From assembly GCF_000003855.2 (NCBI RefSeq), contig NW_003101682.1, forward strand, positions 5,978,524 through 6,042,523: a stretch of DNA of 64,000 nucleotides. The letters are read 5' to 3'. Origin of the DNA: Blastomyces gilchristii SLH14081. Lineage: Eukaryota > Ascomycota > Eurotiomycetes > Onygenales > Ajellomycetaceae. Shown here piece after piece: positions 361 through 46,023 of this stretch; the stretch's first letter is position 1; every line of letters begins with the position of its first letter. A model generated the notes under the pieces. That model made no database searches. It had not been told where the DNA came from and was given only the letters and a program-made list of their open reading frames with translations. Position numbers and translations under genes: made by a program.

Positions 361-1197
361 ATGTGATCAATCACTCAACGCTCACTTATACTCAACGCCC
401 GCCATTTCATCATTACAATGATGAAATATTTTCATTAATATCTTAACAATGCAATTAGATTTTAAGGTGATATATTATATAATGAAAATGTATATAGAAA
501 ATTACACATAAAAATATACAGCTAATTTTGTAGATGTTTATTAGACTTAATAACTCATCTGAAATGTGAAATCTTGAATGAAGACAGATTCAGTGAGTAA
601 GCAGCTATTAAATCAGTAGAGATTGTAATATCATCAGATTTCTTTAGCAGTGAATCTATGAGTATTCTGACAGAGCTCTGAAAATGTGATTTAGTCACTC
701 TTTGTGAAATTGAGAGTCTACTTTTCTGATTAGAAAGGTGATTTTTGAATTCTTCAATCTTTTTCTTATTTAACTGTGATTACTGCTGTACAGCAGCTTG
801 TTCTTTCTTCTCTTTTTGCTCTTGAGTCTTTCTTACATCTCTAAGCTTCTTTTCAATGTGCTGTTGAGTAGCTCTTGCAGTCTTATTCATATCTTTTTAC
901 TACTTTGCTGTCTGATAAGCTATCTCTTACTTCATTCTCTTCTTTATAATATCTATCTTCTTCTATTTCTTAAGAATAGCATATTACAACTTGACATTCT
1001 TCTTACAAGTCTGCTTATTCTTTTTAACAGCTTCAGAAGTGATTATTTTCTTATATATAATCTACATCTTTACTTATGAAAAGAACTGTGTTAATAATGA
1101 ATTTAAAGAATCTAGTAATCTCATTACTCTATCATACTTGTAATATCTTCTCTCTTGATTAAGAGCTTACTGTAGCTGTCTGTTCTCTATTAGAAGA
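361..1197 (-). pseudogene. Fot1/pogo-like transposase, C-terminal part (decayed)
   Basis: Minus-strand reading just beyond the LINE gives a lysine-rich, charged tail. It includes a stretch near 790-890 resembling KKLRDVRKTQEQKEKKEQA, the coiled C-terminal region usual in Fot1-like transposases. It continues the gene broken at 6558. The 13-bp duplication ATCTCTTTATTAA occurs on both sides of the LINE (1198-1210 and 6545-6557), which joins the two parts. Multiple stops are present. Confidence 0.65.
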
Positions 1198-1210
1198 ATC
1201 TCTTTATTAA

Positions 1211-2195
1211 AGACACTTAAACAATCAAGAATCTCTGAAGTAAAAGTAGCAGGTTTGAAAATGAGAGTTCATGAATACAAAGACTCAAGAATGAATCTCA
1301 AAGCTCAAACACAGTGTTATTATTATTATTATTCTTTCATTATACTCATATGCAAGCGGAGCTTATGATGAGTTCTTGCGTGATGTTAAATACAGGTCAA
1401 GTGTTGATTATACAGGAGGAAATACAGGTGTTGAGACCACGCCAAGATAACAAGAACATAGGAAAATACAAAGAAGTGACAATTAGATACATGCGATAAT
1501 AACTTCCCAGCTCAGGAACATAGAGTGATTCATTGAAGTGATTTGTACACCTCTGTATTTATTAGAAACCTGAGGTGCTTGAGTTCCGGATTTAATGTAT
1601 CCCCTGCGGGTTTCGAACCCACGCGCCTTGGTTTCCCACGCCAAGGCGCTACCGGGTGGCCGCATTAACCATTCAGCCACCGGGGCTCAAACACAGTGTT
1701 CAAACTGTCAAAGATATGAACACTTTACAATCTCTTGTTTCAGAGACTCAAAATGCGCATTCTGTGCTAGAGATCACAAAACTAGTGAGCATAAATGTGA
1801 AACATGCTTAAAAAGAGATGAAATATGTCAACATACTCTGCTTAAGTACTTCAATTGCAAAGAAAAACATACATCTAGCTTAAAAGAATGTGTATTTGCT
1901 TCAAGAACTCAGAAGAACTGAAGAAAAGATGAAGCTCAAAGTAAATCTAAAACTGAAAAGAAAAGTCAAGCTAGTAAATCTACAACTGTAAGCTTAAAAA
2001 GAAGAAATTCTTAACTATCTAGATATTCAAACTTCAATTCTTCAGCTAAGTGTAAACAGAATTTGAATTCTTAAACTTCTGTTAAGATTAGAGAATTGAG
2101 AAATGACTCTGATGATAAACTAGATATAATGCAAGTAGTTGAGATTTCTACTTTTCAAAATAGTTATAATCTACTATGTGATGATAGTGATTAGA
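1211..2195 (+). pseudogene. LINE copy A ORF1 (Gag-like) 3' part
   Basis: After the SINE, a run of cysteine/histidine motifs (about 1690-1900; CSNCQRYEHFTISC, CAFCARDHKTSEHKC and following) gives the zinc knuckles of a Tad-type ORF1 protein, which binds the LINE RNA. The N-terminal half is absent because of the 5' truncation. Stops and the SINE insertion make it non-functional. Confidence 0.75.
1319..1684 (-). mobile_element. tRNA-derived SINE, intact, with 16-bp target duplication
   Basis: A 366-bp insertion flanked by GCTCAAACACAGTGTT (1303-1318 and 1685-1700; the first G could belong to the SINE). The second LINE copy shows the empty site at 37343-37361. On the minus strand the head (1684 downward) has an A box (TGGCTGAATGG, near 1680) and a B box (GGTTCGAAACC, near 1613), the internal polymerase III promoter of a tRNA-Ser-like head. 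The body is unique and the tail is AAT repeats (1319-1335). Just before the tail, TATAATGAAAGAATAAT matches the end of the host LINE (TATAATTGAAGAATAAT) with two differences. The SINE is CpG-rich and unmutated although the surrounding LINE is heavily mutated, so it arrived late. Confidence 0.88.
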
Positions 2196-2229
2196 TTCTA
2201 CTCTATCTCTACTCTCTTTTAGTATGAAT

Positions 2230-5200
2230 ACACAACAAAAACAACAAAAAAAGTTTAAAAACTCTTTAAAAATCACATTTATTCAAAATAATGTGAATAG
2301 AAACTCAAATTGCATTTATTCTTGTCTTCAGATTGTATTTAAATAAAAAGTTGACTTTATACTTCTTCAAGAATTAAACTTTGATACTGAGTAAAAGTAT
2401 ATTATTTCTCATTCAAGCTATTACTGCTTTCTTTCTGAAAAATCTGAGATAAAATCAAGAGTAGTGATCTATGAGAGAAAAAGATCAAGATATTAATTTA
2501 ATTTGAGATTTGATATTATATCTGACTCTGATATTCTAGTGAGTGATATTATAGATAAAGAGAATAAGTTTAATACTATTCAACTTTTAAATATCTATAA
2601 TGAAAAGTCATTGAAAGAAAACAACAATATCTGAACAATTGATAGAGGATTTTTGAATATAACTCTCTTAAAAAACTCTATAATTGTAGAAGACTTCAAT
2701 ACACATTATCTCTGATGAAACTCAGAGTGCATAAGAGCAGTAAGAGAAGATAAACTAGTTGAATGAACTTTTAAACACTTAATAGATTTAATTAACAAGT
2801 CTGATTAACAAACATTCTTTAGAAAAGATATGAAATAGAAATCTATTATAGATTTAACTTTCATGTTATAAAATCTAATTAAAAAAAGACTTATAAACTG
2901 ATTTATTAATTCAAATTAAATCTCAGAATTGAGTTATGAGATTATTCAATTTGATATTGAACTGAGTGAAAAATAAAGAAGTGAAAATCCTCTTCTCTCT
3001 AATCAGTATAACTTTGAACAAGCTGATTGAAAAGCAGTTGAAGAAAGAGTAAAACAGCTGAAATCTAAAAGACAGAGTGAGCTCTATTGAAATCAAAGTC
3101 AAGATATCTCAAATGAAATACTTGAGAATAGAGTAAAGCTGATTACATCTATTCTTCTAACAAGTATTGATGAAAATATTTCAAAGAAAAAGTCTTCTGA
3201 GTATTTCAAGCCATGATAAAATGAAAATATCACTTTTAAAAGAAAGCAATTAGTCACTGCTAAGAGAGATTGAAAGAATAACTTAATATCTGATGAAGAG
3301 TTCAAAGCTATTCAAAATGAATATTTTTCAGATATTAAAAGAGTTAAAACAGATTACTGAAATAAATTTCTTGAAGAAGTATAAGAAAAGGAAGTCTTTA
3401 AAGTCTTCAACTATACTAAAACAAGAAGTGTAGTAAAGCTTTCAATCTTAGAATATGAATTTCAGAATGTATTGTATACAGCAAACTCTTTTGAGAAAAA
3501 ATGTCAAGCTTTTATAAGAATTCTCTTTCAAAACTCATCATATTTAGAAGAGAAGAATATGTCATTTTATAAATATATTAATGAAAATAACTGGGAATGA
3601 TCTGAGCTTATATGTGATGAACTAGAGTCAGTAATATTCTCAAGTTCAATTAAGACTGCTACAGAGCCTGATTCAATTAATCACTTAATTATTTAAAACA
3701 CATATTTCTACTTGAAGAATGAATATTTTGAGCTCTTTTTCAATCTCTTAAAAAATGAGTATCACTCTGAATGCTGAAGAGAAGCTACTGAAGTAATTCT
3801 TGTATAATCTAATAGAAAAGCTTCAATTTCTAAGTTATATAGAGTAATATCTCTGTTGAACTGTTTAAGAAAGATTCTAGAAAAAATAATAGCTACTAGA
3901 TTATCTTTTATAAGCTCTATTAGTGATTCTCTTCTATTTAATGAATAAATGAAAGATAGAAAACAATGTTCTGTAATTAACACTGTTCTTTCAGTTATTC
4001 ATGATATTCAAGTAGCAAAGCATGAAGACCTGGTCTCAACTGCAGGTTTTATTGATATAAAAGATGCATTTGATTATGTTTCAAAGTCTAAGATGATTCA
4101 AACTTTGAAGATGTTAAAACTATCACTTTCTCTAATAAAATGAGTTTATTATTTTATGTCTAAAAGAATTATACAACTATTCTTTGATGAAAGAAAACAA
4201 GATAAAACTGAGATAAAAATAGAAGTATCATAAGAATCTTCAATCTCATCTGTTTTATTTGCAATATATACTGCATATCTATTCAAGAATAGAGAGATGA
4301 AAATAGTGAGATCTTCAGATTATATAGATGATATTGATCTAGTCTACAGTTCAAAGACAATTAAAGAGAATTTAGAAATGATTAAGAAAGCAGCAAAGAA
4401 AATCTTTGTTAGAGCAGATATCAATTTAATTCAATTTAATATGAATAAAACTGAGTTACTTCACTTTTTTCCCAGATTTAATGAGAAAGAACTAAGTCTA
4501 ACTCTTTTAAATAAAGAGATTAAACCCAGTTTGAATGTCAAATGACTAGAAGTATGATTAAACTCTAAGTTGAATTTTAAATATCATATTTAACAAAGAA
4601 TTATTAAGACAGAGAGACTACTGAATAGTATAATCAGACTATCAAATACTGAAAGAGGTCTATTCTTTCAGGCTATGAGACAATTATATATAGCCTGTAT
4701 TATCTCAGTAGCTGATTATGAAGTTCAAGTTTAATGAAACAATCAAGATAACTTCACTAAACTCTTTCAAAGTCTATAAAATAGAGCTTTGAAAAGAATT
4801 CTGACAGCATTCAAATCATCTTCTATTAAAGCAATGAAAATTAAAGCTTCAATTCCATCTTCTGCTATTTGATTTGAAAAGGCCTGTATGAACTATGCTC
4901 TGAGAGTCATGAAGATGAGCTTAAATTATATAATCAGAGAAAGAGTCTCTTCTTTATTTCTATCAGTTAACTCAGGAAATGAACTGAATTGAAATAGATT
5001 TCTTAATTGAAATGAGAATAATACTTTAAAGAAAATGCCCTCTCAACTGTATAGACTATGTTCACTTATTAATAATCAATTTTCTTCATTAAATGTTGAG
5101 AAAATTGATCATAAGAAGATATCTCTCTGAAGAAAAAAGCTGAAATCTCTCATAGACTTACAAATAAGTGAACTATTTAAAGAGAGAGAATATAAACAGT

Positions 5201-6170
5201 ATTTGAAGATCTCTACAATCAATATAAAAGACTCTATTCTGATTTACTCAGATGGCTTAAAAAATGAGAATTTGAATAGATTAGGCACAGACATTGCTTA
5301 TACTGAAGATAATATCAATTTCATCTCATATTTCTGAAATTTAGGCTGTGAATCTGAAGTCTTTGATGCTGAACTATTTATAATAGTGAAAGCTTTCAAA
5401 CTCATTGAAATAAAATCTTATAAAAGAGGAAATAGTTTGAAAGAGATATGAATATTCTCTGATAGTCAAGCTGCTTTAAAAAGACTTAGAAATAGTCAGA
5501 TTCATAATAATCAAATAAATCTTGCACTGATTTTAAACTCTGATTTGAAAATTCAAAAGAGAAGAACATCAAAACTGATAATTCATCTGCATTGAGTTCC
5601 TGCTCATATGAATATTCATAGCAATGAATTGGCTGATTCAGCTGTAAAAAAGAGTTCAGAATTAAACAGATCTATTCAAAAAATTGTGTCCTGATCTTTT
5701 ATAAAGAGCAAAATAAAAGAATCTTGTTTAGATAAGTGAAATGAAAGCTGATAGAAACAAAAGAAGAGTATACATTATTCAAGATTTGAAACAAAACCCA
5801 AGTGGAAATCTTGTTCAATTAAATGTAAAAAGAAAATATTCTCATCTATAATTCAGCTGAAACTAGAACATGATTATTTCAAATCCTATATACAAAGATT
5901 TGATGACAGATTTGATTCAACAGAGTGCTCATTCTGCAATGTGAATGAAAATCCTGAGTATATTGTAATGCATTGTGTATTATACAATAGTCTCAGAGTC
6001 AGATTAAAGAAGAAGTATGATTTAAATCAATTAAATATGAGATTCTTATTCTCAACTGAGACAGGAATTAAATACTTAATAGACTTTCTATCAGAAACTC
6101 AAGCAGCTACAAGAAAATGACTAAATTCAGAAATATCTGAATATGAAGAAGAGGAAATTGATCAGATATA
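2230..6170 (+). pseudogene. LINE copy A ORF2: endonuclease, reverse transcriptase, RNase H
   Basis: The apurinic-type endonuclease is visible around 2360-2960 (RVVIYERK, then VEDFNTHYLW with TGA for W). The RT fingers and palm include GFIDIKDAFDYVS (about 4047) and the YxDD-type catalytic box YIDDID at 4322. RNase H runs from about 5230 (IYSDG) through FSDSQAAL (5456) to HxVPAHMNIHSNELAD (5590-5640). A CSFCNVNENPEYIVMHC zinc motif ends the protein (about 5927). Tryptophan positions are mostly TGA and glutamines often TAA/TAG, consistent with RIP. It is a dead copy. Confidence 0.82.
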
Positions 6171-6589
6171 GTCTGTTAAAACAGCTATATACTATCTTTT
6201 GATAATTTGTTTTATTACAGTCTCTCTTTATTTTATCTTTTCCTTTCAATTCCTTTCTATCTATCTACTTAATGTGTCTATCTTTAAGACTATGTTCTCT
6301 TTTCCTTTGTCACAATATTTTCAATTGGTTTTAAAGTATCAGAAGGTGTTGAAATACTGTAATTTGTAAACAGTTTTTATATTCTGAGCTGGAATTTTCT
6401 GATTTTGTATATCTGAAATTGATAAATGTATAATAGTTGACTCTATAGATATAGGAAAAACTCTGAGATCTAAAGGTTCTCAGATAGATGTTATAGTCTC
6501 TGACTGTATACATCTATAATTGAAGAATAATAATAATAATAATAATCTCTTTATTAAGAGCAAAATTTTTCTCTGTATAAAGCACTCAG

Positions 6590-7926: not shown

Positions 7927-7993
7927 GTTGTGAGTGATTCAAGATGAATGAAAAAATGAAGATTGAGCAGGTGTTAAGTGTACGCGGGCGTTG

Positions 7994-8093
7994 TGTTAGT
8001 GATTACTACACCTACCCTAGTCACGTGCCACCCCAACCTATTTAGTGTAACTTGTGTAGTTAGAATACAATATAAAAACATTATTCTTCAAGA
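7994..8093 (+). repeat. Copia-1 5' LTR
   Basis: A 100-bp repeat starting TGTTAGTGATTAC, matching 21824-21923 over its length with scattered transitions and small indels. It is unusual in ending AAGA rather than CA; this end is set by the CGTTG duplication. Confidence 0.8.
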
Positions 8094-26503: not shown

Positions 26504-27035
26504 TGTCACGCTCCCGGCCGCGTCAAGGCCTCATTGCGGTTTCACACGGCTCATCACTTTCATGTGGATAATTTCATTCTGTCTGAACTGGTTTCCAACC
26601 ACTCTATAACATCATTCAGATATATCATAGAAAGATCTGATTGATGAATATGAGAACTCTGCTTCTATACAAGGTCAGCAGATTACTTTTCCTTAGCAGT
26701 GAGATGTCACTGAGGTATTACTCTGACTATTCTCACTCATGAAATAAGAGAAGATATTCACTCATTATCTATATAGAATAGCTAGATGCTGGCTTCTTAT
26801 AAAAGAAATCAGTGATTTATTTTTCTCTCACTGAAATATATATAAGAGTTACTACATATCTCATACAATCTTCTTAGTATACTAAGTATTATATCTGTGA
26901 TATTCTTACAATAACTCTGTAGTCTATAAGCTTGCTATTTAAGCAAGATAGTCAAGCTCACTTATATAGCTTCTTAAATAACTATCTCTATATAACACTG
27001 CTGACTAGTCACTGCTTCAGTTTCAATATATTATA
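26504..27035 (+). repeat. Gypsy-1 5' LTR
   Basis: A 532-bp LTR starting TGTCACG, alignable end to end with 33777-34308 and with the solo LTR at 40629-41163, with differences mainly transitions. Confidence 0.88.
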
Positions 27036-33776: not shown

Positions 33777-34308
33777 TATCACACTCTCAGTTGTATCAAG
33801 ACTCTGTTATAATTTCACACAGCTTATCACTTTCATGTGAATGATTTCATCTCATTTAAACTGATTTTCAACCACTCTATAACATTATTCAGATATATCA
33901 TAGAAAGATCTGATTAATAAATATAAGAACTCTGCTTCTATATGAGATCAGCAGATTACTTTTTCTTGATAGTGAGATATTGCTGAGATATCACTTTAGC
34001 TATTCTCACTTATGAAATGAGAGAAGATATTCACTCATTGTTTATATAGAATAGCTAGATGCTGGCTTCTTATAAAAGAAGTCAGTAATTTGTTTTTCTC
34101 TCACTGAAATATATACAAGAGTTACTGCATGTCTTATACAATCTTCTTAGTATACTAAGTATTATATCTGTGATATTCTTGCAATAACTCTGTAGTCTAT
34201 GAGCTTGCTATTCAAGCAAGATAGTCAAGCTCACTCATACAGCTTCTCAAACAACTACCTCTACATGATGCCGCTGACTAGCCACCGCTTCGGTTCCGAC
34301 ATGTTACA
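33777..34308 (+). repeat. Gypsy-1 3' LTR
   Basis: 532 bp; its start is mutated (TATCACACTC against TGTCACGCTC in the 5' LTR). It ends GTTACA, followed by the GAAAC duplication. Confidence 0.88.
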
Positions 34309-36238: not shown

Positions 36239-37865
36239 ATGAGTTTAAAAGTACACTCAGTTGATGTGAAAAAAGATGCTTTCTCAAATACTATTCCTGA
36301 GATTGAAATTCTGAAGAGAAGAAAGAAAGAAGAAATAGAGAAATAACAAGTTCTTAAAATACAGAAACTTGAAGTAAGTAAAATTCTTGAAAAGCAGTGT
36401 CTGAGTGAGATGAATGAAGAGATTCTATTAATTCTTCATACTCAGACTAAACAACTACAGAAAGTGATCAAGTTCAAACTTGAAATTTCAAACACAGTTC
36501 TAAAAACTTTGAAAATTTCTAATACAATCACTGACTCTTCAGTTTGCTCTTCTTTCTTTTCTACTTCTTCTTCTTCTTCTTCTTTAAATCAGAAGAAAAT
36601 ATATGCTCAAGCAGCTGAATCTGCTATCTCTAAATCTGCTGTCTCTAAATCTGCTATCTCAAAATCTGCTTAAAATCTTGAGAAAACTGAGCAGAATACT
36701 GCTCATACTTCTATTCATAAAAAAGTGAAGAAAAAAATGCAAAAAGAGAAAAACTTTCAAATCTTCAGAAATAGAAGACTTATTCTTAAAGTCTCAAATT
36801 AGAATATCTTATAAAGAAACAAGCTAAACTCAAATCTCATTTTTAGAATCAGAAATGAAATTAATCAGCAGTTCTTTTCTCAGTTGATAACTGATATTGA
36901 AGTTTAAAAATCAGTTATAGCTTCAATTGAGTTATCATTCTTTAAAAACTTCATCATTCTGACTACAATGCCTGAATTCAGTGCAGAATTCCTTATTCAG
37001 AATAAGAATCTCTGAAAATCAGCAGAAAAATCTTTGCTAAACACAATAATTCTATCTGAGAGAGATGAAAAGTGAGATAAATTCATTCTTCATAATATTT
37101 CAGTTGAAATTTTTGACTGTGAAGAAGAAATACTACTTCTTAAAAATGAATTAGAAGAATACAACTCTATTCAACTGAGAAAAGAGTCTGTATAACTAAA
37201 TTCAATTGAGTTCAGATAAAGCAGAAGAAATGTCTCTATTCTAGTATATATAAAGATACTTAAACAGTCAAAGATCTCTGAAGTAAGAGTAGCAGATTTG
37301 AAAATGAGAGTTCATGAATACAAAGACTCAAAAATGAATCTCAAAGCTCAAACATAGTATTCAAACTGTCAAAGATATGAACACTTTACAATCTTATATT
37401 TTAGAGACTTAAAATGTGCATTCTGTGTCAGAGATTATAAAACTAGTAAGCATAAATATGAAATATGCTCAAAAAGAGATGAAATATATCAATACACTCT
37501 GCTTAAGTGCTCTAATTATAAAGAAAAACATGCATCTAGCTCAAAAGAATGTATATTTACTTCAAGAACTCAAAAGAACTGAAGAAAAAATGAAGCTCAA
37601 AGTCAATCTAGAACTGAAGAGAAGAGTCAAGTCAGTAAACTTATAACTATAAGCTTAAAAAGAAGAAACTCTTAACTATCTAAATCTTCAAACTTCAATT
37701 CTTCAGCTAAATGTAAACAGAATTTGAATTCTCAAACTTCTGTTAAGATTAGAGAATTGAGAAATGACTCTGATAATAAACTAGATATAATGCAAGTAGT
37801 TGAGATTTCTACTTTTTAAAATAGTTATAATCTACTATCTGATAATAGTGATTAGATTCTACTCT
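36239..37865 (+). pseudogene. LINE copy B ORF1 (Gag-like, decayed)
   Basis: The first ATG after the monomers is at 36239. The N-terminal part is charged, with a serine run from TTC repeats (about 36545-36585) and a short repeat SAISKSAVSKSAISKSA (about 36625-36672). The zinc knuckles (about 37355-37560) have lost several cysteines to TAT, unlike copy A. The ORF ends near a run of stops about 37850. The protein would coat LINE RNA; this copy cannot. Confidence 0.7.
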
Positions 37866-37889
37866 ATCTCTACTCTCTTTTAGTATGAA

Positions 37890-40800
37890 TATACAATAAA
37901 AACAACAAAAAAAGTTTAAAAAGTTTTCAAAAATCACATTTATTCAAAATAATGTGAATAGAAACTTAAATTGTATTTATTCTTGTCTTCAAATTATATT
38001 TGAATAAAAAGTTGATTTTATACTGCTTCAGAAACCAAATTTTAATACTGAGTAAAAATACATTATTTCTCATTCAAGCTACTACTGCTTTCTATCTTAA
38101 AAGTCTGAGATAAAGTCAAGAATAGTGATCTATGAAAGAAAGAGATTAAGATATTAATTTAATCTAAGATTTAATATCATGTCTGACTCTGATATTCTGA
38201 TGAGTGATATTATAGATAAAGAGAATAAGTTTAATACTATACAGCTCATAAATATCTATAATGAAAAGTTATTGAAGAAAAATAATAATATCTGAATAAT
38301 TGATAGAGAATTTCTGAACATAACTTTATTAAAAAACTCTATAATTGCAGAAGATTTCAATGTATATCATCTCTGATAAAATTCAGAATGTAAGAGAGTA
38401 GTAAGAGCTGATAATCTAATTGAATAAATCTTTGAACATTTAATAGATTTAGTTAATAAGTCTGATCAATAAACATTCTTTAGAAAAGACATGAAACAGA
38501 AATCTATTATAGATCTAATCTTCATATCATAAAATCTAATGAAAAAAAGACTTGTAAACTGATTTATTAATTCAAATGAGACATCAGAATCAGATCATGA
38601 GATTATTCAATTTAATATTGAACTGAGTGAAAAATAAATGAGTGAAAATCCTCTTCTCTCTAATCAGTTTAACTTTGAAAAAGCTGATTGAAAAGCAGTT
38701 GAACAAAGTATAAAACTGTTAAAATCTGAAAGACAGAGTGAGCTATATTAAAATTCTGATCAAGATATCTTAAATGAAATACTTAAGAATAGAGTGAAGC
38801 TTATTACATCTATTATTCTAATAAGTATTAGAGATAATATTTCAAAGAGAAAATCTTCTGAGTATTCAAAATCTTAATGAAATGAGAATATCTCATCTAA
38901 AAGAAAAGAATTAACTACTGCTAGAAGAGATTGAAAGAATGATATAATATCTGATAAAGAGTTCAAAACTGTCAGAAATGAAAATTTTTCAGATATTAAA
39001 AGAGCTAAAACAGACTACTGAAATAAATTTCTTGAGAAAGTATAAGAAAAGAAAGTTTTTAAAGCTTTTAACTATACTAAAATAAGAAGTGTAGCAAAAC
39101 TTTCAGTCTTAGAATATGGGTTTCAGAATGAATTATATACAGCAAACTCTTTTGAGAAAAAATGTCAAGCTTTTATAAGAATTCTCTTTCAAAACTCATC
39201 AGATTCAAATTCAGAGAAAGAGAATATATCACTTCTCAACTATATTGATGAAAATGACTGAGAATGATCTAATCTTACATAAGATAAATTAGAGTCAGCT
39301 ATCTTCTCAAGTTCTGTTAAAACTGCTGCAGAGCCTGATTCAATTAATCACTTAATTATTCAAAAGATATATTTCTACTTAAAGAATGAATATTTTAAGC
39401 TCTTTTTTAATCTCTTGAAAAATGAATATTATTTTGAATGCTGAAGAGAAGTTACTGAAGTGATTCTTATAAAACCTAATAGAAAAACTTCAATTTCTAA
39501 GTCATATAAAGTAATATCTCTATTAAACTGTCTAGAAAAGGTTTTAGAAAAGATAATAACTACTCAATTATCTTTTATAAGCTCTATTAATAACTCTCTT
39601 TTATTCAGTGAATAAATGAGAGATAGAAAACAATATTCTGTAATTAATACTGTTCTCTCAGTTATTTATAATATTTAAATAGCAAAGTATGAAGATCTGA
39701 TCTTAACTGCAGTTTTTATTAATATAAAAGAAGCATTTAATTATATTTCAAAGTCAAAGTTAATTCAGACTTTAAAGATGTTAAAACTGTCACTTTCTCT
39801 AATAAAATGAGTTAACTGTTTTATATCTGAAAGAATCATATAAATTTTCTTTGATGAAATGAAATAAGATAAGACTGAGATAAAAATAGAAGTATTATAA
39901 GAATCTTCAATCTCACTTATTTTATTTATAATATACACTGCATATCTATTCAAAGATAGAAATATGAAAATAGTGTAATTTTCAAGTTATATAGATGATA
40001 TTAATCTAGTCTACAGCTCAAAAACTATTAAAGAGAATTTAAAAGTGATTAAAAAAGCTGTAAAGAAAATCTTTGTCAGAGCAGATATCAATTAAATTCA
40101 ATTTAATATGAATAAAACTGAGTTAATTCATTTCTTTTCTAGATTCAATGAGAAAGAACTATCTCTAACTCTTTTAAATAGAGAGATTAAACCCAGTTTA
40201 AATATTAAATGATTAGAAGTATGACTAAACTTTAAGTTGAATTTTAAATATTATATTCAACAAAGAACTGTCAAGACAGAAAGACTATTAAACAACATTA
40301 TCAGACTATCAAATACAGAGAGAGATCTATTCTTCCAGACTATGAGACAGTTATATATAACCTGTATTATCTCAGTAGCTGATTATGAAGTTTAAGTTTG
40401 ATAGAATAATCAAGGAAATTTCACTGAACTCTTTCAAAGTCTATAAAACAGAGCTTTGAGAAGAATTCTGAGAGTATTCAAATCATCTTCTATTAAAGCA
40501 ATGAAAATTGAAGCTTTAATTCTCTCTTCTACTATTAGATTTGAAAAGGCCTGTATGAACTATACTCTGAGAGTTATAAAGATGAGCTTAAATTATATAA
40601 TCAGAGAAAGAGTCTCTTCTTCATTTTCTGTCACGCCCCCGGCCGCGCCAAGGCCCCGCTGCGGTTTCACACGGCCCATCGCTTCCATGCGGATGATTCC
40701 ATCCCGTCCGAACCGGTTTCCAACCACCCTATGACATCATTCGGATATATCATAGGAAGATCCGATTGATGGATATGAGAACCCCGCTTCTATACGAGGT

Positions 40801-42390
40801 CAGCAGATTACTCTTCCTTGGCAGTGAGGCGCCGCTGAGGTATCGCTCCAGCTATCCTCGCTCATGGAATGGGAGGAGGGTATCCGCTCATTGTCTATAT
40901 AGAATAGCTAGATGCTGGCTCCCCATTAAAGGAGCCAGCAATTCGTTTTTCTCCTACTGGAATATATATATGAGAGTTACTGCGTGCCTCATACAATCTT
41001 CTTAGTATACTAAGTACCATATCTGTGACATTCTTGCAATAACCCTGTAGCCTATGAGCTCGCTATTCAAGCAAGATAGTCAAGCCCACCCATACGGCTT
41101 CCCAAACAACTACCCCTACGTGACGCCGCCGACTAGCCACCGCTTCGGTTCCGTCACGTTACATTTTCATTAATTAACTCTGGAAATGAACTGGATTGAA
41201 ATAGATTTCTTGATTGAAATGAAAATAATTCTTTAAAGAAAATGTCTTCTCAACTGTACAGACTATGCTCACTGATTAAAAATCAATTTTCTTCTTTAAA
41301 TATTGAAAAAGTTCATCATGAGAAGTTATCTCTCTGAAGAGAAAAGCTTGAATCTCTTATAAACTTGTAAATAAGTGAACTATCTAAAGAGAAAGAATAT
41401 GAACAGTATTTGAAGAGAATTTCTACAATTAATATAAAAGACTCTATTCTGATTTATTCAGATGACTCAAAAAATGAGAATTTGAATAGATTAGACACAG
41501 ACATTGCTTATACTGAAGATAATATTAATTTTATCTCAGATTTCTGAAATTTAGACTGTGAATCTGAAGTCTTTAACACTGAACTATTTATAATAGTGAA
41601 AGCTTTCAAACTTATTAAAATAAAATCTTATAAAAGAGAAAATAGTTTGAAAGAGATATAAATATTCTCTGATAGTTAAGCTGCTTTAAAAAGACTTAGA
41701 AATAGTCAGATTTATAATGATTAAATGAATCTTGAACTGATCTTAAACTCTGTTTTAAAAATTCAAAAGAGAAGAATATCAAAGCTGATAATTTATCTAC
41801 ACTAAGTTTCTGCTTATATAAATATTTATAATAATGAATTGACTGATTCAGCTGTAAAAAAAGATTCAGAACTAAGCAGATTTATTTAAAAAATTATATT
41901 CTGATCTTTTATAAAGAGAAAAATAAAAGAATCTTGTTTAGATAAGTGAAATGAAAGCTGATAGAAATAAAAAAAGAGTATATATTATTCAAGATTTGAA
42001 ATAAAACTCAAGTGAAAATCTTGTTTAATTAAATATAAAAAGAAAATATTCTCATCTATAATACAGCTGAAACTAGAATATGACTATTTTAAATCTTATA
42101 TACAAAGATTTGATAATAGATTTGATTCAATAGAATGCTTATTCTGCAATACAAATAAGAATTCTGAGTATATTATAATACACTGTGTATTATTCAATAG
42201 TCTCAGAGTCAGATTGAAAGAGAAGTATGATTTAAATTAATTAAATATAAGATTTTTATTCTCAACTGAGACAGGAATTAAATACTTAATAGACTTTCTA
42301 TCAGAAACTCAAGCAGCTATAAGAAAATGACTGAATTCAGAAATATCTGTATATAAAGAGAAGGAAATTGATCAGATATAGTCTGTTAAA
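37890..42390 (+). pseudogene. LINE copy B ORF2 (endonuclease, RT, RNase H; decayed)
   Basis: It aligns base for base with copy A ORF2. Endonuclease is at about 37960-38620, RT about 39050-40250 (YIDDIN near 39990), RNase H about 41450-41870, and a terminal zinc motif about 42140-42200. It is interrupted by the solo LTR at 40629-41163. Stop density is higher than in copy A. Confidence 0.75.
40629..41163 (+). mobile_element. Unmutated solo LTR of the Gypsy-1 family
   Basis: A 535-bp TGTCACGCCCCC...GTTACA sequence flanked by TTTTC (40624-40628, 41164-41168), inserted in LINE copy B. The interrupted site is seen intact in copy A at about 4965-4975. It aligns to the Gypsy-1 LTRs (26504, 33777) but keeps its CpGs (GGCCGCGCC, CCGCTGCGG). 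It therefore inserted after the surrounding LINE was mutated, lost its interior by LTR recombination, and shows the pre-mutation LTR state. Confidence 0.92.
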
Positions 42391-42762
42391 ACAGTTATAT
42401 ACTATCTTTTAATAATTTATTTTATTACAGTCTCTCTTTATTTTACTTTACTTTTTTCTTTCTATTCTTTTCTATCTATCTATTTAATGTGTCTATCTTT
42501 AAGACTGTATTCTCTTTTCTTTTGTCATGATATTGTCAAATGATTTCAAAGTATCAGAAGATGTTAAAATACTGAAATTTGTAAACAGTTTTTATATTCT
42601 GAGCTGAAATTTTCTGATTTTACATATCTGAAATTGATGAATGTATAATAGTTAACTTTATAGATATAGGAAAAACCCTGAGAACTTTTAGTTCTTAGAT
42701 AGATATTATAGTCTCTGACTGTATATATCTGTAATTGAAGAATAATAATAATAATAATAATT

Positions 42763-44454: not shown

Positions 44455-46023
44455 ATGTTCGCCGTTCCCGGATGGTCTATTTCAAATGCGGAATTGAAGC
44501 TACAAACGGAGTATAAAGCTAAAACAGAACATCCGCCTCCTCAACCACAGGACTCTACGGAACCGAATGCCGAATCCAAGAAGCGGAAAAGAAAACAGGG
44601 AAAGGATCTCAATGACCAAAAGGTCACCAAGGGCAATGTGGATGAGATGTGGAGGAGGGTTATCGAAGGGGAAGCACCCAGTTCGGGCAAAAAGAGTGGC
44701 GCCCAGATAAAGGGAATGAAGAAGCGGAGGAAGTTAGAGAAAGCTGCTGAGAATGGAGCCGTTCAGGGATTGAAGGATACGGGCGCTGAAGGGACCAAAT
44801 CGAAAGACGCCTCTATCTCCCCACCTGCAACTCCAGCAGATTCTATTGGTTCATTTAAGAAAAGCAAGAAACACAGGAAGCGCAAAGGAGAAAATAATGC
44901 TGAACAAACGAACGTGGCGGCTACAAATACACCAGGAGCAGTCGACTCCGTACCCCCTGCTCCTCCACCATCAACATCCCTCACACCGCTCCAGCAATCC
45001 ATGCGCCAAAAGCTTCTCTCAGCCCGATTCCGTCACCTCAACCAGACCCTGTACACCACACCGTCCAGCCAAGCCATGGAACTTTTCACCTCCAACCCGG
45101 AGCTCTTCTTAGAATACCATGCAGGCTTTACCCGACAGGTACAGGAGTCCTGGCCGTCGAATCCCGTCGATGGGTACATCAGTGCCGTGAAGACTCGCGG
45201 CGCCCTGCGCCCACCCAATCAGAGGGGTGGTCAGAACAGAAAGCCAGATAAAAACGAGCGGAGAGCCGCTGCTCTTGGGCCCTTACCACGAAGGCCCAAT
45301 GGGCTCTGCACGATAGCAGACATGGGCTGTGGCGATGCTAAACTTGCCCGGGTTCTGACACCGTCAGCCAAGGCTTTGAAACTCAAGTTGCTTAGCTTTG
45401 ATTTGCATGTGGCTGATCCGCTGATTATGAAGGCAGATATTTCTGCGTTGCCGATTGCGGATGGGACGGTCGATGTGGCTATTTTCTGTCTTAGTTTGAT
45501 GGGGACGAATTGGGTGTCCTTTATTGAGGAGGCGTGGAGAGTACTAAGGGGTGATGGGAAAGGAGAGTGCTGGGTGAGTGAGGTTAAGAGTCGGTTTGGG
45601 AAAGTTGCTCGGAGGAACAAGATCGGGCAGAGGGGAGGTGGAGCTGGGGCGGGGAAGAAAGAGAGGAAGAAAAAGAGTGGTAAAGGGAAAGATAACGAAG
45701 ACGAGGAGGCGATTGATGATGAGGAGATATTCCTAGAGGATCAGGTTAATACTGCTGCAGATGAGACGGATATTTCTGCATTTGTGGAAGTACTGAGGAC
45801 TCGTGGTTTTGTGCTTAAGCAGGAGTCGGTGGATAAGTCGAACAAAATGTTTGTCAAGATGGAGTTTGTCAAGCATGGGCATCCGACTAAGGGCAAATGG
45901 GCTGTTAATGTGAACGACACCAGGTTTGGGAAGAAGAAATTCATTGAAAATGATGACGGTAACGGGATGGCGCCTGAAGAAGAGAGTAAGGTGCTTAAAC
46001 CGTGTGTATATAAGACCAGATAG
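44455..46023 (+). CDS. RRP8: 25S rRNA (adenine-N1) methyltransferase Rrp8
   Basis: A single-exon gene of 522 residues. The start MFAVPGWSISNAELK is the conserved Rrp8 N-terminus. A long basic, low-complexity region (residues about 35-165, rich in KKRKRK) suggests nucleolar localisation. The Rrp8 domain starts near residue 180 (LTPLQQSMRQKLLSARFRHLN). The SAM motif is IADMGCGDAKLARVL at 287-301, followed by SFDLHVADP, ADISALPIADGTVDVAIFCL and LMGTNWVSFIEEAWRVL. In yeast the enzyme makes m1A in 25S rRNA. An acidic/lysine insert (residues about 395-425) breaks the C-terminal part, as in other fungi. Copia-2 ends 187 bp upstream, so the promoter is short or partly made of LTR. It converges with PUP2. 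Confidence 0.95.
   Translation: MFAVPGWSISNAELKLQTEYKAKTEHPPPQPQDSTEPNAESKKRKRKQGKDLNDQKVTKGNVDEMWRRVIEGEAPSSGKKSGAQIKGMKKRRKLEKAAENGAVQGLKDTGAEGTKSKDASISPPATPADSIGSFKKSKKHRKRKGENNAEQTNVAATNTPGAVDSVPPAPPPSTSLTPLQQSMRQKLLSARFRHLNQTLYTTPSSQAMELFTSNPELFLEYHAGFTRQVQESWPSNPVDGYISAVKTRGALRPPNQRGGQNRKPDKNERRAAALGPLPRRPNGLCTIADMGCGDAKLARVLTPSAKALKLKLLSFDLHVADPLIMKADISALPIADGTVDVAIFCLSLMGTNWVSFIEEAWRVLRGDGKGECWVSEVKSRFGKVARRNKIGQRGGGAGAGKKERKKKSGKGKDNEDEEAIDDEEIFLEDQVNTAADETDISAFVEVLRTRGFVLKQESVDKSNKMFVKMEFVKHGHPTKGKWAVNVNDTRFGKKKFIENDDGNGMAPEEESKVLKPCVYKTR

What the first reader, a model, noticed from the sequence alone, without database searches (positions are those of the whole stretch)
1319..1684. 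SINE whose 3' end matches the LINE it sits in
The minus-strand SINE ends TATAATGAAAGAATAAT plus AAT repeats. Both LINE copies end in nearly the same string (TATAATTGAAGAATAAT, about 6515 onward; GTAATTGAAGAATAAT, about 42730 onward) plus AAT repeats. SINEs that share a tail with a LINE are known to borrow that LINE's reverse transcriptase. Here a fungal tRNA-Ser-like SINE appears paired with a Tad-type LINE, with a precise 16-bp duplication and a paralogous empty site at 37343. The SINE is unmutated, so a working LINE partner existed after these copies died.
Basis: partly seen in the sequence, partly recalled or inferred. Interest (0 to 1): 0.85.

Follow-up and report, generated by a model that had tools for sequence, protein, structure and literature searches.

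The report
Fungal SINE shares LINE tail hairpin
A short mobile DNA element in what is most likely a Blastomyces fungus ends in the same small RNA hairpin as a long mobile element of that genome, with matching changes on both sides of the stem, which is good evidence that the short one is copied by the long one's enzyme; such pairs are known, also in fungi, and this one was not found described in the papers searched.

Summary
Window 1319-1684 (minus strand) is a SINE with a 16-bp target duplication, inside a 5'-truncated Tad-like LINE; five uninterrupted copies of the site were found. In less mutated copies the last 46 nt (into the AAT repeats) align without gaps, 32 identical. Twelve of the 14 differences are both sides of six base pairs in one two-stem hairpin of 11 pairs, all still paired. 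In 200,000 random placements of 14 substitutions none gave five compensated pairs (the structure was drawn from these sequences). The SINE-LINE similarity lies in the SINE's last ~50 nt. Genome-wide 2658 places carry the tail core (reversed control 1); 1703 have the LINE-type and 831 the SINE-type hairpin arm, 124 were not classified. The host is most likely a Blastomyces. Best reading: a stringent-type SINE/LINE pair whose hairpin the LINE reverse transcriptase recognises. New member of a known kind (Mg-SINE/MGL, SINE2-1_BG/Tad1-24_BG, AfuSINE2-1a/I-1_AF), with covariation support. Not shown: recognition itself, the tRNA of origin, which LINE subfamily is the partner.

The parts
1319..1684 (-). 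SINE, 366 bp: tRNA-like head with A and B boxes at its 5' end (from about 1598), LINE-like tail at its 3' end
   Evidence: Pol III boxes TGGCTGAATGG and GGTTCGAAACC; tRNA model 12.8 bits, below cut-off
1303..1318 (.). target-site duplication, left copy
   Evidence: exact 16-bp repeat
1685..1700 (.). target-site duplication, right copy (first two bases may belong to the SINE)
1344..1373 (-). two-stem hairpin at the 3' end of the SINE (columns 8-37 of alignment A1)
   Evidence: 76.9 bits, E 1.4e-14; this sequence is one of those in the model
1319..1333 (-). (AAT)5 array ending the SINE
1211..6546 (+). LINE copy A, 5'-truncated, mutated; the SINE lies inside it
1197..1210 (.). LINE A target duplication AATCTCTTTATTAA, left copy
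   Evidence: 14 bp; reversed-flank control for this copy 8
6544..6557 (.). LINE A target duplication, right copy (overlaps the last AAT)
6486..6515 (+). two-stem hairpin at the 3' end of LINE A
6526..6546 (+). (AAT)7 array ending LINE A
37251..42761 (+). LINE copy B (matched from 37251; its own 5' end was not determined), interrupted by a solo LTR
42701..42730 (+). hairpin region at the 3' end of LINE B (mutated)
37346..37361 (+). uninterrupted paralogue of the SINE target site (two letters differ)

Best explanation
A stringent-type SINE/LINE pair. The SINE is a Pol III-type unit with a tRNA-like head and a 3' end homologous to that of an abundant Tad-like LINE of the same genome. In RNA both ends form an outer stem of 6 pairs, internal loops CA and CAU, an inner stem of 5 pairs and a UCU or UCC triloop, followed by UAUAAU-N-GAAG (its first U pairs in the outer stem) and (AAU)n. 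The LINE reverse transcriptase would bind this hairpin in LINE or SINE RNA and start target-primed reverse transcription in the AAU repeats at a nick, leaving target duplications of about 12-18 bp. Shown: homology of the tail, compensated pairing, a tail found on these two families as far as tested, target duplications, a 5'-truncated SINE copy. Inferred: binding by the reverse transcriptase and use of this LINE's enzyme.
For: Tail identity 32 of 46, with 12 of 14 differences forming six two-sided, pair-keeping changes among 11 pairs; 0 of 200,000 simulations reach five, 308 of 200,000 keep all 11 pairs. On 23 distinct tails 93.3% of cells pair, against 19-48% when partners are slid by 1-3 columns; on all 42 tails, L017 included, 438 of 462. 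SINE-LINE similarity with E below 1e-4 only in SINE 318-368 (75.5-78.4%). Tails genome-wide are mostly LINE- or SINE-type (2534 of 2658). The 35 tails examined in L001-L028 belong to one of the two families. Target duplications with script score of at least 10 in 17 of 20 SINE copies, against 1 of 380 when 5' and 3' flanks of different copies are crossed; repeats of 13-18 bp at 4 of 19 LINE ends examined, reversed-flank control at most 11. A 5'-truncated SINE of about 47 nt (L017). One SINE and one LINE at the same base of two copies of one repeat (L015 and L016, 3' flanks 90% over 70 nt from base 1). LINE domains in order: endonuclease (23.3 bits, below its 27.4 cut-off), RT, RNase H (L030).
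Against: Two families give in effect one evolutionary comparison, and the structure was drawn from the same sequences on which it was tested. Two of the five measures do not exceed the column shuffles (pairs with two-sided change 6, reached by 329 of 500; further pair types 9, reached by 500 of 500). With changes fixed at the observed columns, random letters still keep all pairs in 3905 of 500,000 trials. The stems of SINE and LINE differ clearly, so the SINE's own partner may be another LINE subfamily. No binding or transposition was tested. LINE duplications were found at only 4 of 19 ends (many lack their 5' flank in the held DNA; one of the 19, L043, is probably a chance pattern match); for two the partner lies 7.6-8.2 kb upstream and may be another repeat copy. 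A second SINE/LINE pair in one repeat (L046, L027) is six bases apart, not at the same base. L001-L028 were chosen by SINE or tail matches.
Confidence: 0.85

Rival explanations
1. The SINE is mobilised by a sister LINE subfamily whose tail carries the SINE-type stems; the LINE in the window is a cousin, and the likeness is inherited.
For: Six of 11 pairs differ between SINE and LINE, while differences within each family are largely C-to-T and G-to-A (by eye). Only the best LINE copies were listed (140 of 1703 candidates), so minor subfamilies may be missed; L029 and L022 carry LINE-type hairpins behind sequence that departs from the main LINE.
Against: All 21 SINE-type tails among the 35 of L001-L028 sit on SINE sequence, one over only 43 bp. 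Of 399 exact SINE hairpins in the genome the upstream letters were printed for 11, all SINE. No LINE with SINE-type stems was met.
Confidence: 0.25
2. Chance or convergent likeness of AT-rich ends next to an AAT microsatellite.
For: AT-rich surroundings; the AAT repeats by themselves would align.
Against: Identical letters outside the repeats and compensated stems (0 of 200,000 simulations); tail core 2658 against 1 reversed.
Confidence: 0.02
3. The hairpin is shared for another reason, such as RNA 3'-end formation, stability or export, not recognition by the reverse transcriptase.
For: Covariation speaks for selection on structure, not for its purpose.
Against: LINE and SINE are expected to use different polymerases (general knowledge), so one end-forming signal is less likely; the hairpin lies at the integrated end before a short repeat, as in UnaL2/UnaSINE1 (PMC5135761, passages).
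Confidence: 0.1

Closest known systems
Mg-SINE with MGL/MGR583 (Magnaporthe)
   Same: fungal tRNA-related SINE listed with a LINE partner sharing its 3' end (PMC3747384, table passage); PMC5135761 says a 3' stem-loop was found for Tad1 in fungi and cites the Mg-SINE work (passages)
   Different: other fungus; its sequences were not compared here
SINE2-1_BG with Tad1-24_BG (Blumeria)
   Same: fungal tRNA SINE and Tad1 LINE listed as a pair (PMC3747384, table passage)
   Different: sequences not available here, not compared
AfuSINE2-1a with I-1_AF (Aspergillus fumigatus, Tad clade)
   Same: tRNA-related SINE whose positions 210-335 resemble the 3' UTR of a Tad LINE; ends in a trinucleotide repeat, ACT (PMC5063351, passages and section 17)
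   Different: repeat is ACT, not AAT; longer shared part; no hairpin described in what was read
UnaL2/UnaSINE1 (eel)
   Same: shared 3' tail of hairpin plus short tandem repeat, both needed for transposition (PMC5135761, passages)
   Different: GGAUA loop and TGTAA repeat; experimentally shown
Maize/sorghum SINEs with plant L1
   Same: about 50 nt of common end, putative hairpin with compensatory mutations and a UCU loop (PMC3747384, section 16)
   Different: L1 clade; conserved CGAG after the stem

Membership tests
SINE | Pol III internal promoter (A and B boxes) near the 5' end | tested here: met
   A box at 8-18 and B box at 68-78 of the SINE; the only such pair in the window, both strands
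SINE | derived from an identifiable tRNA, 5S or 7SL RNA | tested here: inconclusive
   Rfam tRNA over the whole head, 12.8 bits, E 2.7, cut-off 29; ARAGORN none
SINE | many dispersed copies with target duplications | tested here: met
   1158 candidates, best 40 scored at 98-100%; 17 of 20 copies with duplication score of at least 10, crossed control 1 of 380
Stringent-type SINE/LINE pair | SINE 3' end homologous to the LINE 3' end, similarity limited to the tail | tested here: met
   outside the tail the best match was E 0.009 (20 nt, L028)
Stringent-type SINE/LINE pair | common 3' stem-loop | tested here: met
   predicted, with covariation:
Stringent-type SINE/LINE pair | reverse transcriptase requires the 3' end | not testable with these tools
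   needs a biochemical or cell assay
Tad clade LINE | endonuclease, RT, RNase H in this order | tested here: inconclusive
   L030: RT 77.1 and RNase H 51.5 bits over cut-off; endonuclease 23.3 bits, under the cut-off of 27.4, on a partial frame
Tad clade LINE | groups with Tad elements in an RT phylogeny | not tested
   no tree was built; the Blastomyces genome paper reports non-LTR Tad1 (PMC4595289, section 9); among the 120 listed of 303 related proteins the one with a fungal name is from Podosphaera aphanis (P0055, 47%)

The most novel reading that the evidence does not exclude
The reverse transcriptase of a Tad-type LINE recognises a 30-nt two-stem hairpin by its shape and its unpaired letters (CA, UCY, CAU, and UAUAAU-N-GAAG downstream), not by stem sequence; the SINE has replaced six of 11 base pairs while staying mobile, so SINE and LINE together form a natural mutagenesis map of the recognition site.
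Probability: 0.55. Interest if true: 0.55.

Novelty: new member of a known kind. Interest (0 to 1): 0.45.

Why it matters
Fungal SINE/LINE pairs are few in the literature read here (three named ones). This pair adds a very abundant example (thousands of tails) in a human-pathogenic genus whose repeats are reported as almost all Gypsy, and gives covariation evidence that points to a small, testable recognition hairpin for a Tad-like reverse transcriptase.

Tried and rejected
Chance likeness: rejected. Unrelated elements with the same tail: sought with a pattern that has G or C at a column separating the two families; 7 places, by eye 4 SINE-like, 2 LINE-like, 1 odd (C8:779733). tRNA-Ser origin: not confirmed. 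Ordering SINE insertion and LINE decay by mutations in the duplicated target: uninformative, since three of the five uninterrupted sites are letter-identical and the other two (L017, window 37346) differ at two letters each. L016 LINE repeat 8.2 kb upstream: not trusted, because only about 300 bp of LINE match precede the tail. Rfam hits snoR4a, GlsR7 and sR19 in the SINE region: far below their cut-offs, ignored. Tools not used as irrelevant: protein folding, phage, plasmid and E. coli searches.

Full report
What was claimed.

Observation. The sequence is as described. The SINE is flanked by an exact 16-bp repeat (1303-1318, 1685-1700). The uninterrupted site is found at window 37346-37361 and in L026, L017, L023 and L021; three of these five are letter-identical over the 16 bases, L017 and the window copy differ at two each. 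The LINE around it is itself 5'-truncated, with a 14-bp duplication. The SINE family is large: 1158 candidate places in the 74.8-Mb genome, of which the 40 best were scored and match at 98-100%.

Host. The RRP8 gene at window 44455-46023 is 91% identical to that of Blastomyces silverae and 89% to those of B. parvus and B. percursus, so the genome is most likely a Blastomyces; no call names the species. [quoted passage not shown] Word searches inside that paper and inside a 2024 Blastomyces paper on LTR elements (PMC11540331, passages) find no mention of a SINE.

Tail genome-wide. The core TAATNNAAGAATAATAATAAT occurs 2658 times (1358+1300), against 1 for the reversed pattern. The variable pair is GG 237 times and GA 560 times. 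In the held loci GG, GA and AG tails are on the SINE, TG and TA tails on the LINE, and AA tails on the SINE save one, L029, with a LINE-type hairpin. Patterns that include the right arm of the hairpin match 1703 LINE-type and 831 SINE-type places, with no reversed match; together 2534 of 2658, so 124 were not classified. A pattern for tails with G or C at a separating column gave 7 places, one of them odd. In L001-L028 all 35 tails examined have the SINE (21) or the LINE (14) as best BLAST match, one over 104 bp only (L022) and one, a 5'-truncated SINE in L017, over 43 bp. L001 is the window's own SINE, and these loci were fetched because of SINE or tail matches, so this is not a blind sample.

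How far the likeness goes. In less mutated copies the LINE end (for example L025) and the SINE end (for example L005) lie side by side without gaps: 32 of 46 letters are equal. BLAST between the window SINE and LINE loci finds the likeness in SINE positions 318-368, 75.5-78.4% identical, E 7e-5 to 5e-7, in the five loci L018 and L025-L028; L030, which lacks the 3' end, has no such match. Other matches had E 0.003 or more; the best one outside the tail was 20 nt in L028, E 0.009.

Hairpin. Folded alone, both ends give the same shape: outer stem, internal loops of 2 and 3 nt, inner stem of 5 pairs, triloop. The structure was then written down and tested on the same sequences. Of 14 differences in 46 columns, 12 are the two sides of six pairs (LINE to SINE: G-C to A-U, U-A to C-G, A-U to U-A and G-C to C-G in the outer stem; G-C to A-U and U-A to G-C in the inner stem); all 11 pairs are kept, and two differences are unpaired. 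Further pairs at the foot of the LINE's outer stem (columns 7-38 and 6-39) are not formed in the same way by the SINE; they were left out of the 11. Placing 14 substitutions at random gave four compensated pairs 34 times and never five in 200,000 trials, and all 11 pairs kept 308 times; with changes fixed at the observed columns and random letters, all pairs were kept in 3905 of 500,000 trials. Stabilities: 5 of 1000 and 17 of 1000 letter shuffles of the LINE and SINE hairpins are as stable. On 24 tails (23 distinct) out of 42 - most of the rest duplicates of these; L017, truncated, was also left out - 93.3% of cells pair, against 19-48% when partners are slid by 1 to 3 columns. Cells with two-sided change (51 against 23.0) and the covariation score (0.462 against 0.190) exceed all 500 column shuffles, but the number of pairs with two-sided change (6; 329 of 500 reach it) and of further pair types (9; 500 of 500 reach it) do not. 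Because the tails fall in two families these cells are not independent. On all 42 tails 438 of 462 pairs are kept; the worst are L017 with 5 of 11 and L022 with 8 of 11.

Covariance model. A model of these tails over 362 kb gave 46 matches with E below 1e-4 (45 places, as L001 repeats the window) and 3 with E 0.36-1. In the 64-kb window it hits only the SINE end and the two LINE ends. Most of the 46 were in the model or were chosen by tail, so this shows consistency rather than discovery.

Integration. Of 20 SINE copies with a recognisable head, 17 have end repeats with script score of at least 10, 12-18 letters long with at most one mismatch; L002, L011 and one copy in L020 fail; four further tails without such a head were not scored. 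Crossing 5' and 3' flanks of different copies gives 1 of 380. LINE ends: 4 of 19 have a repeat of 13-18 bp upstream in the held DNA, against at most 11 for reversed flanks; two of these (L016, L026) lie 7.6-8.2 kb upstream and may be other copies of a repeat. The base after the AAT array is A in 19 of 24 SINE and 14 of 18 LINE copies, which may simply continue the repeat. One SINE (L015) and one LINE end (L016) sit at the same base of two copies of one repeat; a second such couple (L046, L027) is six bases apart (24 SINE and 18 LINE flanks compared).

LINE. L030 carries endonuclease (below cut-off), RT and RNase H matches in that order; its frames are broken, and it matches the window LINE at 87% over 3.7 kb. 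In a protein search 140 of 1703 candidates were scored; 4 have no stop in the matched RT stretch, the query itself among them. A complete working copy was not shown.

Literature. Ohshima 2013 (PMC3747384; passages, sections 7 and 16) lists two fungal pairs and describes a hairpin with compensatory mutations and a UCU loop in plant L1/SINE pairs. PMC5135761 (passages) says that the stem-loop was found for Tad1 in fungi, citing Mg-SINE work. PMC5063351 (passages and section 17) reports the Aspergillus fumigatus pair. Searches for Blastomyces with SINE, LINE or Tad1 terms (9 papers listed, and 12 listed of 265) showed no title or abstract start about a Blastomyces SINE; the library is open-access only and most papers were seen as listings, so absence from print is not established.

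Verdict. It is a new member of a known kind with good structural support. Unknown remain the tRNA of origin, the exact LINE partner and direct proof of recognition.

Noticed in passing
window 40629-41163: Solo LTR (TG...CA ends, TSD TTTTC at 40624-40628 and 41164-41168, by eye), not CpG-depleted, inside LINE copy B; related stretches at 26506-27035 and 33779-34308.
   Followed up: partly
window 1686-6531 and 37351-42746 against L030: LINE decay is mostly C-to-T/G-to-A but favours CpC (61% and 77% changed) over CpA (27% and 34%); CpG is almost absent even in L030 (4 sites in the aligned part). This differs from classical CpA-directed RIP (recalled).
   Followed up: partly
L017 around 7978-8024: SINE copy truncated to about 47 nt, little more than the right hairpin arm and tail, with AACACAGAATAACT on both sides.
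   Followed up: partly
G000:C8:779733-779767 and G000:C1:2253750-2253782: Tails that mix features of the two families; possible third variant or mutated copies.
   Followed up: no
L029 3313-3365 (minus) and L022 7963-8015 (plus): LINE-type hairpin and tail preceded by sequence that departs from the main LINE family, perhaps a diverged LINE subfamily.
   Followed up: no
window 1623-1649 (minus): Perfect 9-bp inverted repeat in the SINE head, roughly where a tRNA would have its anticodon arm.
   Followed up: no
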